Assembly: GCF_030068505.1 (NCBI RefSeq)
Contig: NZ_JAQOSO010000074.1
Span: forward strand, 1 to 64,000
DNA: 64,000 nucleotides
DNA from: Roseofilum capinflatum BLCC-M114
GTDB taxonomy: Bacteria > Cyanobacteriota > Cyanobacteriia > Cyanobacteriales > Desertifilaceae
Direction: 5' to 3'
The notes under the pieces are model-generated. The model was not told the DNA's origin and did no database searches. It saw nothing but the letters and a program-made list of their open reading frames with translations. Position 1 is the stretch's first letter. Every line of letters starts with the position of its first letter. This document shows positions 4,285 through 54,038 of this stretch, in pieces. Position numbers and translations under genes: made by a program.

Positions 4285-4641
4285 AGCTAGGAAAGATTGA
4301 AGATAACAGTCAGAATGGGTGATTATAGGAAGGCCTCAACACTGGAGAGGCTTGATTCCGGTTTCAGTTAGATAAGTTTACACTTGTTGGGTGTTAAACA
4401 ACACACTTATCATGGAAATCAACGGAACATCAGGATTAAAGAAGTGCAGGAACCCAGATTTGATCGATCGCCTTGAGAGAGGGACTCAACCAGATATAAT
4501 GGTTAAGAATTATAAACCCCTAATGATCGATAGTGGCTATCTGCTGCCATTTTTCCGCAAGCGGACATGAAAAGGTTAAACCCGAACTCCATCGACTCAT
4601 TATTCCCAATCCTGACGCTTACCCTGCCCTTGGAGGTTTCG
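4285..4641. other. Intergenic region with a long inverted repeat
   Basis: This stretch separates two divergent genes. It holds an inverted repeat at 4371-4411 (GATAAGT ... ACTTATC, with TGTTG/CAACA inside) and, at 4550-4572, copy A of the TTCCGCAA-GCGGACATGAA palindrome that also sits in tnpB. A 52-codon frame (4412-4570) ends in that repeat and lacks a ribosome site, so I do not call it. Confidence 0.5.
4550..4572 (+). repeat. Short palindromic repeat, copy A
   Basis: The unit reads TTTTTCCGCAAGCGG then ACATGAA. It matches the complement of 52409-52432 inside tnpB with one gap, and its second half matches 7566-7576. The core CCGC-AA-GCGG can form a hairpin. It falls over the first possible ATG of the ABC-F gene, which argues against that upstream start. 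Confidence 0.7.
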
Positions 4642-7548: not shown

Positions 7549-7582
7549 TAGCGCTTTCTGCTTCGCGGACATGAACGCGCTA
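7549..7582 (+). repeat. Short palindromic repeat, copy B, inside a TAGCGC/GCGCTA inverted repeat
   Basis: The CTTCGCGGACATGAAC core (7561-7576) matches copies A (4550-4572) and C (52409-52432, complement). It is framed by TAGCGC (7549-7554) and GCGCTA (7577-7582). The region 7474-7707 is a pile-up of such elements: this one, AGGGAAT repeats, a C-run/G-run hairpin (7600-7622), and the 42-nt repeat. Confidence 0.65.
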
Positions 7583-49575: not shown

Positions 49576-51063
49576 TCAGTGGTTTCTCAAACCTAGTTCG
49601 ATCGCCTCAATCACCGACTCTAAGACCTTCACTCGCGCATAGAGCTTATTATTGCCCGCGACCACTGTCCAAGGAGCATTGGGGGTATGGGTGCGGCCAA
49701 TAGCCTGATTCACGGCGACCTCGTATAAGCCCCATTTTTCCCGGTTTCGCCAATCTTCATCGGTTAACTTATAGCGCTTAAAGGGATCGTTCTGACGGGA
49801 CTCAAATCGCTCTAACTGTTCCTCTGGACTCACATGGAGCCAAAACTTAACTAAAACATACCCGGCATGGGTTAACATGGCTTCAAATTCATTAATCTCG
49901 CGATAGGCTCGCCGCCATTGGATATCGGTGGCAAAGCCTTCAATGCGTTCGACTAAGACCCGACCATACCAGGTGCGGTCAAAAATGCCAATTTTGCCGG
50001 CCGTGGGTAAATCCCGCCAAAACCGCCATAGGTAATGATGCATTTTTTCCTCAGAAGTGGGCGCGGAAAATGCTCTCACTTCATAACTGCGAGGGTCTAG
50101 ATTATTGGTTAAGCGCTTAATGGCTCCTCCTTTTCCGGCAGCATCCCATCCTTCAAATAGGGCCAATACGGGCAATTTCTCCTTAAAAATCTTCAGTTGT
50201 AATTCCTGTAGTCTTACCTGGGCTTTTTTCAGCCGTTTTTTATATTCTTTCTTCGATAAGGAAGCACCCAGATCCACCCGTGCCAGAAAGTCGGGTTCTG
50301 TAGGTTCTAATTGCTCTTGGGGAGGTAAAGGAGCAGGAATGAGTTGACTTTGGCGACGGTCTAGGGCTTCTCGCAGGGTAGCGGCGACGGTTTGCAAGAC
50401 TTTCACTTGGGCCCAGCGCTGACAGTTGCCTTCCACTAATGTCCAGGGGGCAAACCCGGTACTGGTTTGGATAATCATTTCTTCTGCCAGCATCCGATAG
50501 TCATGATACCGTTTGACTTGTTGCCAATCTTCGTCCCGGACTCGCCAAGCATTGAGCCGGTCTTTGGCGTAGGCTTTGAGCCGTTGCTTGAGTTCTTTTT
50601 TACTCACATGAATCCAAAATTTGGCGATCGCACAGCCATCATCGCTCATTTGCCGTTCAAAGGCATTAATATGGCGCATCAGGGCGGGAACTTGGGATTC
50701 TTGGACGCGATCGAAGAGCCGGTCTTCGAGAACATGGGTATACCAGCTATGGTAAAATAGCCCGATGCTGCCGTAGTGGGGAATTTTGTGCCAAAAGCGC
50801 CAGAGGAAAGGATAGTTTTTTTCTTCGGCATTGGGCGGCCAAATGGGATGGACGGCAAATCCCCTAGGGTCCATATAACCAATGACATTTTTGACCAGAG
50901 CGCCTTTACCGGCTGCTGCCCACCCTTCAAGCACGATAATCATGGGTAATTTTTTCTCCCAACAGGCATGTTGAAGCGATCGCAACTGTTGCATCAGATC
51001 TTCTATTTCTGTTTTGTAGCGGTGCTTGTCGAGAGAACGATCCAAATTCAGTTGCTTGAGCAT
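49576..51063 (-). CDS. Polyphosphate kinase 2, two-domain (polyphosphate:AMP phosphotransferase type)
   Basis: The 495-aa product has two PPK2 domains in tandem. Walker A loops are GWAAAGKGALVKN and GWDAAGKGGAIKR, and each domain has the lid region (WPPNAEEKNYPFLWRFW, APTSEEKMHHYLWRFW) and DRTWYGRVLVERIEG-like motif (in the first, degenerate: YHSWYTHVLEDR). Two-domain PPK2s of this layout usually phosphorylate AMP with polyphosphate. In such proteins only the C-terminal domain is active as a rule, which fits the changed motif in the first. ATG 51063 is chosen over 51126: AAGGA lies upstream. Confidence 0.9.
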   Translation of the reverse strand: MLKQLNLDRSLDKHRYKTEIEDLMQQLRSLQHACWEKKLPMIIVLEGWAAAGKGALVKNVIGYMDPRGFAVHPIWPPNAEEKNYPFLWRFWHKIPHYGSIGLFYHSWYTHVLEDRLFDRVQESQVPALMRHINAFERQMSDDGCAIAKFWIHVSKKELKQRLKAYAKDRLNAWRVRDEDWQQVKRYHDYRMLAEEMIIQTSTGFAPWTLVEGNCQRWAQVKVLQTVAATLREALDRRQSQLIPAPLPPQEQLEPTEPDFLARVDLGASLSKKEYKKRLKKAQVRLQELQLKIFKEKLPVLALFEGWDAAGKGGAIKRLTNNLDPRSYEVRAFSAPTSEEKMHHYLWRFWRDLPTAGKIGIFDRTWYGRVLVERIEGFATDIQWRRAYREINEFEAMLTHAGYVLVKFWLHVSPEEQLERFESRQNDPFKRYKLTDEDWRNREKWGLYEVAVNQAIGRTHTPNAPWTVVAGNNKLYARVKVLESVIEAIELGLRNH

Positions 51064-51218
51064 TCGGGTATATGTCCTTGTATGGTGGTTCTGATATGAT
51101 CGGCGATCGCCTCCTAATTTTACCAATCCTTTGGTTTATTTTTAACTTTGAATCCTCCCTTCTATCCTTTCCTCTCCATTTGATATACTGAAGGGATAAC
51201 AACTGAGGAGATCCCATC

Positions 51219-51491
51219 ATGGAAACTCACTCCGATAACGATCTTTCCCTAATCTCGGTTATCCCTTCCGCGTGCCTCTCCCCGATTTTCTCCACAAGTC
51301 TCAGACTTATTTTAAGGGAGGTTGTAGGGCTTTTGAAATGGATTCTAGAGGGCGGATTATTGCTGGTCTTGATCGGGGGAGCGACTCTGTTTGGGTCTCC
51401 AGAATTGAGTTATATCCTGGTCTGTGGACTTGTTTTTTTAATTTTTATGGCTGTGATTATTCAACTCCTGAAAGTTAAAGTAATTTCTTAA
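51219..51491 (+). CDS. Small membrane protein, 90 aa
   Basis: I recognise no family. The product has a polar start (METHSDNDLSLISVIP), an amphipathic stretch, and two membrane helices (ILEGGLLLVLIGGATLFG and LSYILVCGLVFLIFMAVIIQLL). GAGGAG at 51205-51210 precedes the ATG at good spacing, which supports translation. It is divergent from the PPK2 gene and ends 22 bp before the IS-type left end. Confidence 0.55.
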   Translation: METHSDNDLSLISVIPSACLSPIFSTSLRLILREVVGLLKWILEGGLLLVLIGGATLFGSPELSYILVCGLVFLIFMAVIIQLLKVKVIS

Positions 51492-51628
51492 ACCATTCTT
51501 TTATCATAGAAATGGGTTGAAAACCCCGTCCTTCAGGACGGCTTTTCTTGCTTTCTAATATACCAGTTTCTTCTGTGTTACAATATTTGTGATATAATGT
51601 AAGAGAAGTCAAAACTAAGCTTTACTTC

Positions 51629-52844
51629 ATGGAAAAAGCACAAAATTACCGATTTTACCCAACACCTGAACAAGAGTCGCTATTACGACGAACTTTAGGA
51701 TGTGTAAGATTTGTTTACAACAAAGCTCTCCATGAAAGAACTCAAGCTTGGTATGAACGGCAAGAAAGAGTGGGTTACAGCGAAACTTCTTTTATGCTAA
51801 CTCTTTGGAAGAAGGAAGACGACTTAAGTTTTCTTAATGAAGTTAGTAGCGTTCCATTACAGCAAGGGTTAAGACATTTACAAACTGCTTTTGCCAACTT
51901 TTTTACTAAACGGGCAAAATATCCCAATTTCAAGAAAAAACATCAGGGCGGTAGCGCCGAATTCACTAAAGCTGCTTTTAAGTTCAAAGATGGTGAAATC
52001 TATTTAGCCAAATGTAAAGAACCTTTACCCATTCGATGGTCTCGTCAAATTCCTGAAGGATGTCAGCCAACTTCGGTAACAGTGAAGCTCCATCCGTCAG
52101 GGCGTTGGCACATTTCCATCCAGCTTGATGATCCGACTATCAAGCCTTTACCTGCGAATAATAAAGCAGTAGGGATTGACTTAGGTCTGAGTAGTTTGGT
52201 AATTACCAGTGATGGGGAAAAATTTCCTAACCCTAAGCACTTAAAAAAACACTACCGTAAACTCAGAAGACTTCAAAAAATTCTATCCCGTAAACAGAAA
52301 GGATCTAATAATCGGTATAAAGCCAGGGTCAAATTAGCTAAAGCTCACCTAAAAATTACCGACACACGAAAAGACCATTTACACAAAATAACTACTCAAC
52401 TAATTCGTGTTCATGTCCGCTTTGCGGAAAAATCAAACGATTGGTGTTGAAGACTTAGCTGTGAAAAATATGGTCAAAAACCGAAAACTGTCTCAAGCAA
52501 TATCTGATGCAAGTTGGGGAGAGTTGACCCGTCAGTTGGAATATAAGTGCCAATGGTACGGTAGAAACTATATGGAAATTGATCGATGGTTCCCTAGTTC
52601 TAAGCGATGCAGTAATTGTGGACATATTGAAGAAAGAATGCCGTTAAATATTCGGGAATGGGATTGTCCTAAATGTGGAACACACCACGACCGAGATATT
52701 AACGCATCAAAAAATATTTTGGCGGCAGGGCTTGCCGTGTCAGTCTGTGGAGCGAGTGTAAGACCTGATCTGAGTAAATCAGTGAAGGCAACTGCTATGA
52801 AACAGAAACCTAAAGCCTCCTGCGGAGGAGCTTCGCTAACGTGA
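51629..52844 (+). pseudogene. tnpB: TnpB RNA-guided endonuclease, frameshifted
   Basis: Two overlapping frames (51629-52450 and 52407-52844) together make one TnpB. The first holds the N-terminal helical/wedge part and RuvC-I Asp in AVGIDLGLSSL. The second holds the RuvC-II Glu (VEDLAVKNM), the zinc finger CSNCGHIEER...CPKCG and the RuvC-III Asp (DRDINASKN). All catalytic residues remain. The break follows TTQLIR: a net 19-nt insertion (52409-52432) shifts the frame before NQTIGVED. The inserted DNA supplies GTG 52407 and ATG 52413 for the second half, so two separate peptides are possible but an active enzyme is doubtful. TnpB cuts DNA under guidance of the RNA from the element's right end. 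Confidence 0.88.
52409..52432 (-). repeat. Short palindromic repeat, copy C, inserted in tnpB
   Basis: The complement reads TTTTTCCGCAAAGCGG then ACATGAAC and matches copy A (4550-4572) with one extra A. It sits between codons for LIR and NQT, where an unbroken TnpB would read on directly. Confidence 0.8.
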
Positions 52845-52883
52845 GGTTTAGGAATCCCCTCGCCTTCAGGCAGGGGTTGGATG

Positions 52884-53921
52884 TCAATCACTTAACGCTT
52901 CAGTTAAGTTCTGAGCATTGTTTTCCATGATTCTTAAATAAGCCGTTGGTTCACTCCTGGTTGTGTCTCCTGTCGCGATCGGATCGAACATGCTCACTTC
53001 AATGTTCAGGTCTTGAGCTAAGGTTTCAAAGGCTTTAGTGCCGACTCCTGGTTCTTCTAGCAAGGCTTGAATTTGTTCTGCTTGCACAATTTCGATCAAA
53101 CGGCGCACGTCTTCAGGAGAGGGGTTTTCTTCGGGGATGTCCACTAAAAATTCAGATCTCAGACCATAACTCTGGGCGAAATAATTGGCGAAATCATGAA
53201 AGGTGATAAAGGTTTGTCCTGCGTAAGGTTGCAGTTTTTCGGTGATTTGAGCATCTAAGGCTTTGAGTTCTTCGATAAAGACCGCCGCATTTTGGGTGTA
53301 AATTTCTTGTCCTTCTGGGTCGGCGGCAATGAAAGCATCACGGATATTTTCGACTTGCTGAATGGCTCGTTTGGGATCGAGCCAAATGTGGGGGTCGAAT
53401 TCTCCATGATGGTGATGACCATGGTCGTGGTCGTGGTCGTGGTCATGGTCATGGTCATGGTCATGGTCGTGGTCGTGGTCATGATCGTGGTCATCATGGC
53501 CATGGTCTTTTTCTGCAACCCTCAAGAGTTCAATGCCGGAACTCGAATCAACGATGATTAAATCGCTATTCTCGGCATTGTTGATCATGTCATCCAAGAA
53601 AAACTCTAGTTCTAAGCCATTTTTGACTAAGATATCTGCTTGGGCGATCGCCTGAACATCCGCAGGTTTGGCTTGGTAATCGTGGGGGCCAACATTGGTC
53701 GGTAGTAATTGGACAACTTCTGCGCGATCGCCTACCACTGCCTTGGTAAATTGAGTCATGGGCAAAAATGTGGTCACCACCTCCAACTCGTCCTGCTCTT
53801 CTACAACGGCTGTATTTTCTTCGGTGGTGGATTCAATACTGGAGTTAGAAGCACAACTGACCACAGAGAGCGCGGTGACAACGGCGATCGCCAACTGACT
53901 GACCCTTTTTCCTAGAAGCAT
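52884..53921 (-). CDS. znuA: Zinc ABC transporter substrate-binding protein (ZnuA-like)
   Basis: The 345-aa product captures zinc in the periplasm for an ABC importer. An N-terminal signal ends in the lipobox-like SVVSCAS (Cys near residue 23). Metal His ligands are in GPHDYQAKP, FDPHIWLDP, and FHDFANYF. A long His/Asp loop ([HD]n, ~52 bp units near 53395-53515) binds zinc before it enters the pocket. Its stop codon lies in the right end of the IS element, so the last residues may be altered. znuB and znuC are not in the window. The Zur-like box upstream points to zinc control. Confidence 0.92.
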   Translation of the reverse strand: MLLGKRVSQLAIAVVTALSVVSCASNSSIESTTEENTAVVEEQDELEVVTTFLPMTQFTKAVVGDRAEVVQLLPTNVGPHDYQAKPADVQAIAQADILVKNGLELEFFLDDMINNAENSDLIIVDSSSGIELLRVAEKDHGHDDHDHDHDHDHDHDHDHDHDHDHDHGHHHHGEFDPHIWLDPKRAIQQVENIRDAFIAADPEGQEIYTQNAAVFIEELKALDAQITEKLQPYAGQTFITFHDFANYFAQSYGLRSEFLVDIPEENPSPEDVRRLIEIVQAEQIQALLEEPGVGTKAFETLAQDLNIEVSMFDPIATGDTTRSEPTAYLRIMENNAQNLTEALSD

Positions 53922-53935
53922 GATCGACTAAACAT

Positions 53936-53958
53936 AGAATGATTATCATTTTTTATTT
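53936..53958 (-). promoter_or_regulatory. Zur/Fur-type operator upstream of znuA
   Basis: The complement holds AAAATGATAATCATTCT, the core TGATAATCATT of Fur-family boxes, 15-37 nt before the ATG at 53921. Next to a zinc-binding protein gene, Zur is the likely repressor; Fur cannot be excluded by sequence. Confidence 0.75.
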
Positions 53959-54038
53959 TACCCCTCTTGTGTCAAACTGTGTGAATCCTGTTCGAGAATC
54001 CAACCGTTACGGACTCTGGAAGATTTATACTGCTTCTG

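What the first reader, a model, noticed from the sequence alone, without database searches (positions are those of the whole stretch)
52409..52432. A mobile-looking palindromic repeat has broken tnpB
Inside tnpB, a 24-nt stretch whose complement matches 4550-4572 (one gap) interrupts the coding sequence between LIR and NQTIGVED. The third related copy at 7561-7576 shares the GCGGACATGAAC half. The net gain of 19 nt shifts the frame, and the insert itself brings a GTG and an ATG for the downstream half. So a small repeat seems able to move into new sites, and here it splits a nuclease into RuvC-I and RuvC-II/III parts. It is an interruption of known architecture by an element with no described mechanism that I can name.
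Basis: partly seen in the sequence, partly recalled or inferred. Interest (0 to 1): 0.75.

Follow-up and report, generated by a model that had tools for sequence, protein, structure and literature searches.

The report
Tiny hopping hairpin breaks tnpB
A DNA hairpin of only about 18 to 21 letters has spread to hundreds of places in some Roseofilum cyanobacteria, nearly always just after two T's, and one copy has cut a gene of another mobile element in two; how anything so small can move is an open question that these copies make easier to test.

Summary
A 19-nt element (52410-52428, minus strand) interrupts tnpB; relatives show the exact empty site. It belongs to a family, TCCGC-loop-GCGGA-CATGAA, expanded in one genus (Roseofilum). 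The 11-nt core occurs 203 times in this genome, 384 and 122 times in two congeners, 5-15 times in three others, 0-6 times in 33 genomes outside the genus. Empty and filled sites in about a dozen contexts show insertion of exactly 18-19 nt directly after TT, without target duplication. TT precedes 110 of 111 Roseofilum copies examined but 6 of 94 same-motif matches in other records. A second subfamily keeps the tail and the TT but has a compensatory stem change. A second tnpB copy in this genome and a tnpB fragment in a congener carry the same insert. Known kind: small dispersed repeats of cyanobacteria (original paper not readable here; recalled). Mechanism (inferred): mobilisation in trans as single-stranded DNA by a Y1/HUH enzyme, REP-like, with the element's terminal AA (TT on the other strand) acting as guide for the TT target. 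No enzyme is identified; the resident REP transposase has its own GTAG hairpins. The tnpB break itself is ordinary; a functional restart of its downstream half is unsupported.

The parts
52410..52428 (-). Copy of the mobile hairpin element (AAA-loop type, 19 nt) inside tnpB
52429..52430 (-). Target dinucleotide TT (reads AA on the plus strand), directly 5' of the element in the element's own orientation
51629..52450 (+). Upstream open frame of the interrupted tnpB (273 aa; HTH_OrfB_IS605 and OrfB_IS605 domains); its last codons run through the insert into the shifted frame
52407..52844 (+). Downstream open frame of the interrupted tnpB (145 aa; Cas12f1-like_TNB domain)
4554..4571 (+). Second copy (AA-loop type, 18 nt) at a unique site; congeners G002 and G001 have the empty site
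7557..7575 (+). Third copy (TTC-loop type, 19 nt) inside a larger repeat with an AGCGC-TTC-GCGCT palindrome

Best explanation
The insert is one copy of a family of very small mobile hairpins (18-21 nt: TC[C/G]GC, a loop of 2-5 nt, the complementary arm, then CATGAA) that has multiplied in some species of Roseofilum. Shown by sequence comparison: insertion of exactly the element, directly 3' of TT in the target, with no target duplication; later copying of the insert inside larger repeats (minitransposons, IS200/IS605 elements). Inferred: the element codes for nothing and is moved in trans. The anatomy best fits single-strand transposition by a Y1 (HUH) enzyme of the REP-transposase / IS200 kind: on the bottom strand the element reads 5'-TTCATG-hairpin, followed in the target by AA, so an unpaired tag at the hairpin foot would act as a guide whose TT chooses the complementary AA (TT on the top strand) as the joining site. 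In tnpB the 19-nt insert shifts the frame and leaves RuvC-I apart from RuvC-II/III (residue assignment recalled), so this copy is very probably dead as a nuclease and survives as a passenger.
For: Copy number 203 against a control of 1. Burst limited to three of six Roseofilum genomes. Empty/filled pairs in eight repeat contexts, in tnpB, at C40 upstream of tnpB, at window 4554 and in a G002 tnpB 3' end. TT before 110 of 111 copies in loci fetched without asking for TT, against 6 of 94 outside Roseofilum and 2 of 40 in viral contigs. Paired stem changes: 90 TCCGC/GCGGA and 11 TCGGC/GCCGA against 1 cross-combination (Fisher p 7e-14; related copies make this too small, and 13 of the 104 GCGGA rows were left out: 8 with no TT-preceded arm, 3 TGGGC, 2 TCTGC). 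Tail nearly invariant: 12 places with another last dinucleotide in the six genomes against 641 with TT and CATGAA. For the enzyme type: passages of PMC8266576 report TnpAREP cutting at CT or CA, chosen through the GTAG tag at the hairpin foot, and one REP with a 5-bp stem and 4-nt loop, about the size seen here.
Against: No enzyme is identified. The one full-length REP transposase shared by the three burst genomes is flanked by its own GGTAGGGTGTG hairpins, not by this element; a 62% identical relative occurs in G006, which has no core match; with 3 against 3 genomes the association has p = 0.10. The tag is neither GTAG nor CGTC. The guide idea could not be tested by covariation because the tail hardly varies: of the 12 variants, 9 are still preceded by TT. 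The hairpin is weak by energy: z about -2.5 for 3-4-nt loops but only -1.0 for the common AA loop. Copies within one repeat family are not independent events.
Confidence: 0.45

Rival explanations
1. The element moves through an RNA copy (as I recall Elhai and colleagues proposing for their small dispersed repeats), for example reverse splicing or reverse transcription primed at TT.
For: Precise insertion without target duplication and a conserved hairpin are compatible with it.
Against: Nothing found here points to RNA: copies lie on both strands in nearly equal number (110 against 93), and 28 of the 29 loci of the first batch that could be tested lie outside any open frame longer than 161 codons. 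Neither point excludes it. I did not search for reverse transcriptases.
Confidence: 0.2
2. No enzyme of its own: copies arise by template switching at replication forks, using TT as microhomology to a donor copy.
For: TT is shared by donor and target in nearly all cases, and inserts often lie in or beside other palindromes.
Against: The other end is just as exact (ends in CATGAA) with no shared bases there, which a one-sided microhomology does not explain; the same sequence is not amplified in the 33 genomes outside the genus.
Confidence: 0.15
3. The element is an ordinary REP moved by the resident 179-aa REP transposase.
For: The protein (NF047646) is present at 92-100% identity in exactly the three genomes with the burst.
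Against: Its gene is flanked by GTAG-tagged hairpins of another sequence and by no copy of this element; p = 0.10; the 62% relative in G006 goes with no copies.
Confidence: 0.15
4. Precise excision rather than insertion: the empty sites are derived.
For: Empty/filled comparison alone is symmetrical.
Against: Nine tnpB relatives in five congeners lack the insert and read through, and at window 4554 G001, G002, G003 and G005 all lack it; insertion is simpler.
Confidence: 0.03

Closest known systems
Small dispersed repeats (SDR) of cyanobacteria, Elhai et al. 2008 Genome Research (not held; recalled, with citing passages in PMC4390886, PMC3116915, PMC3733652)
   Different: Another genus (Roseofilum); target is TT, not HIP1; slightly shorter than the 21-27 nt that I recall. 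I could not compare the sequences with the eight published families.
REP sequences and their transposases (REPtrons; PMC8266576, PMC6006769, PMC3733652, passages only)
   Same: Short palindrome with an unpaired tag at the foot, high copy number; joining or cutting at a dinucleotide; one studied REP has a 5-bp stem and a 4-nt loop.
   Different: Tag is TTCATG, not GTAG or CGTC; no transposase gene seen flanked by it; TT/AA instead of CT or CA.
IS200/IS605 element ends
   Same: Hairpin, insertion 3' of a short T-rich target without duplication (recalled), guide-to-target pairing (passage in PMC6006769).
   Different: One hairpin only, no left and right ends around a gene.
GC clusters of yeast mitochondrial DNA (PMC4478555, passages)
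   Same: Mobile GC-rich hairpins without genes and without a known enzyme.
   Different: About 42 nt for the best studied one, flanked by AG or ACT direct repeats; here no duplication.

Membership tests
Small dispersed repeats (SDR) | About 21-27 nt, many dispersed copies (recalled) | tested here: met
   18-21 nt without the TT, 178 full copies in this genome; slightly under the recalled range
Small dispersed repeats (SDR) | Shared hairpin supported by paired changes (recalled) | tested here: met
Small dispersed repeats (SDR) | Found inside minitransposons, short tandem repeats and copies of themselves (recalled) | tested here: met
   apparent nesting
Small dispersed repeats (SDR) | Sequence match to one of the eight published families | not testable with these tools
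   paper not held
REP | GTAG or CGTC tag at the hairpin foot | tested here: not met
   tag is TTCATG
REP | REP transposase gene flanked by the same hairpin | tested here: not met
   the full-length REP transposases examined in G000, G003 and G005 have other hairpins; not every Y1 gene of the six genomes was fetched
MITE / classical transposon | Terminal inverted repeats and target duplication | tested here: not met
   no duplication; the element is itself one hairpin
Y1/HUH single-strand transposition | Insertion 3' of a short fixed target, no duplication | tested here: met
Y1/HUH single-strand transposition | Cutting of the element by a Y1 enzyme; bias to the lagging-strand template | not tested
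   needs purified protein and a closed genome

The most novel reading that the evidence does not exclude
These 18-21-nt hairpins are the smallest guide-directed mobile DNA: each carries its own two-base guide (the TT of TTCATG on one strand), which chooses the complementary dinucleotide in single-stranded target DNA, so that the whole transposon is one recognition hairpin moved by an enzyme that belongs to something else.
Probability: 0.25. Interest if true: 0.8.

Novelty: new member of a known kind. Interest (0 to 1): 0.5.

Why it matters
How repeats of about 20 nt move has, to my knowledge, been open since they were described. Here the ends, the target rule and the absence of duplication can be read directly from paired empty and filled sites, and the six congeners give a contrast (three with about 100 to 350 full copies, three with 0 to 11), so candidate enzymes can be tested. 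Such hairpins also break genes: here a tnpB, and in R. acuticapitatum one copy lies in frame inside a tnpA.

Tried and rejected
Searching the literature for the core letters (18 papers, listing only, none on cyanobacteria by title) and for Roseofilum with repeat terms (1,198 papers hold at least three of four terms; the 8 listed never name Roseofilum) gave no earlier description; both searches cover only the held open-licence library.

The REP transposases were examined as the mover and put second, because their genes carry other hairpins and the association is weak. Rfam found nothing at 50000-54000.

A test whether targets are themselves hairpins gave a weak result (29 representative sites, mean -4.4 against -3.2 kcal/mol for 1000 random TT windows, one-sided p 0.011); some of these loci had been fetched with TT in the pattern and many hosts are palindromic repeats, so I do not build on it. 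The TT count (167 of 168) has the same bias and is not used.

A ribosomal frameshift rejoining the tnpB halves was considered by eye: the run of five A's would favour -1, the halves need +1; rejected. L015, inside a 667-codon frame, lacks the TT and the 5' arm and is taken as a chance match.

Full report
What is there. The window lies in a draft genome of 5.37 Mb (G000, contig C74). tnpB at 51629-52844 is read in two overlapping frames (273 and 145 aa) with the N-terminal and OrfB domains in the first and the C-terminal nuclease domain in the second. Between them lies the 19-nt insert 52410-52428.

Empty site. Nine tnpB relatives visible (from G001, G002, G003, G004 and G005) lack exactly 19 nt. 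Two other tnpB sequences carry the same insert at the same place: a second copy in this genome (G000:C40, 94% identical over the first 260 residues, with one TGA in it) and a 325-bp fragment in G003 (C22, 90%). Between the two copies of this genome no substitution occurs in the 414 nt around the insert (52184-52597), against 86 in the rest of 51560-52862; in 20000 uniform random placements no such run arose. So gene conversion, or another exchange between IS copies, probably carried the insert from one to the other.

The C40 copy has a further element upstream of its tnpB. The window copy lacks it, and relatives in G005 and G002 have the uninterrupted sequence; the G005 sequence differs from the filled one by exactly the 19 nt at that place. 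The window copy at 4554-4571 is absent from G001, G002, G003 and G005 at the same place; G001 and G002 show the clean empty site, while G003 and G005 differ locally.

The family. The core GCGGACATGAA occurs 203 times in G000, 384 in G005, 122 in G003, 15 in G002, 14 in G001, 5 in G004, and 0-6 times in each of 33 genomes outside the genus, where the reversed control is just as frequent. Full elements with TT: 178, 347, 96, 11, 9 and 0, control 0 in all six. Loops are mostly TTC, AA or AAA. A second subfamily, TCGGC-loop-GCCGA-CATGAA, mostly with the loop TGTC, has 49, 19, 19, 5, 8 and 2 copies in G000, G005, G003, G002, G001 and G004. In loci not chosen by the 5' arm, GCGGA goes with TCCGC in 90 of 104 rows and with TCGGC in 1; GCCGA goes with TCGGC in 11 of 11. 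The other 13 GCGGA rows were 8 with no arm preceded by TT, 3 TGGGC and 2 TCTGC.

Target rule. Eight repeat contexts have both forms in the sequence held: empty/filled counts 6/19, 2/15, 2/14, 3/7, 5/4, 6/14, 2/10 and 14/1. Loci were chosen for the element, so the ratios mean nothing, and the short patterns also catch other members of the host repeats. In each, 18-19 nt stand directly after TT with nothing duplicated; where the next base is T the boundary can slide by one. TT precedes 110 of 111 distinct copies in loci fetched without TT in the query (copies within 20 nt of a locus end dropped); many are relatives by descent. The same motif outside Roseofilum has TT in 6 of 94 copies and in viral contigs in 2 of 40, while the Roseofilum loci of that scan have 32 of 32. 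TT makes up 8.5% of dinucleotides in the window.

Where copies sit. Most copies seen are passengers in larger repeats: a minitransposon with ends ATATCAAGTCCGG carrying two copies about 117 nt apart, palindromes, short tandem repeats. Of 29 loci of the first batch, 7 have an open frame of at least 100 codons across the repeat; six of these are 161 codons or shorter and the seventh is the chance match L015. IS200/IS605 elements are hit repeatedly: tnpB here, upstream of tnpB at C40, a tnpB 3' end in G002 (L065), the right end in G005 (L071), and in one G005 element (L088) both tnpA, in frame, and the 3' end of tnpB. Most of those loci were fetched because they hold IS genes, so this is no fair count. 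Apparent copies within copies occur in L334, L361 and L364.

How it may work. The element codes for nothing, so it must be moved in trans or by replication error. Exact ends on both sides argue against error alone. The lack of duplication, the hairpin, and a two-base target complementary to the element's own last two bases resemble REP and IS200/IS605 chemistry, in which an unpaired tag at the hairpin foot guides the cut (passages of PMC8266576 and PMC6006769). On the bottom strand the order is TTCATG, hairpin, AA. This is inference. No enzyme was tied to the element: the 179-aa REP transposase present only in the three burst genomes (92-100% identical) is surrounded by GGTAGGGTGTG hairpins, a 62% relative in G006 goes with no copies, and three against three genomes gives p = 0.10. 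G004, which has no Y1 protein hit, has no full TCCGC copy but two of the second subfamily.

Against the reading. The AA-loop hairpin is weak on its own (z -1.0). Twelve copies with another last dinucleotide were found; nine are still preceded by TT, so target and tail do not visibly co-vary, though such changes may have followed insertion.

Compared with the known. The nearest kind is the SDR of Elhai 2008, which I could not open and know from recall and from citing passages. It shares size, hairpin, dispersal, hosts and nesting. It is not a REP by tag or by neighbouring transposase, and not a MITE. The tnpB break is one casualty among many insertions.

Noticed in passing
window 52184-52597 and G000:C40 (L050): 414 nt without a substitution between two tnpB copies that otherwise differ at 86 places, suggesting gene conversion between IS copies.
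   Followed up: partly
L088 1529 and 3137 (G005:C123): One IS200/IS605 element carries two copies: 18 nt in frame inside tnpA, and 19 nt at the 3' end of tnpB.
   Followed up: partly
L074, L076, L078; L075, L077: Two REP transposase genes with their own hairpins (GGTAGGGTGTG and GTAGGTTGGGTT types); the second has a TAG stop inside in G000.
   Followed up: partly
L347, L350 position 1503: Copies of the second subfamily sit in the loop or at the loop edge of other, REP-like palindromes.
   Followed up: partly
window 53393-53509: The open frame on the minus strand at 52884-53921 has a long His-Asp run (DHDHDHDH), like a metal-binding protein; not part of this finding.
   Followed up: no
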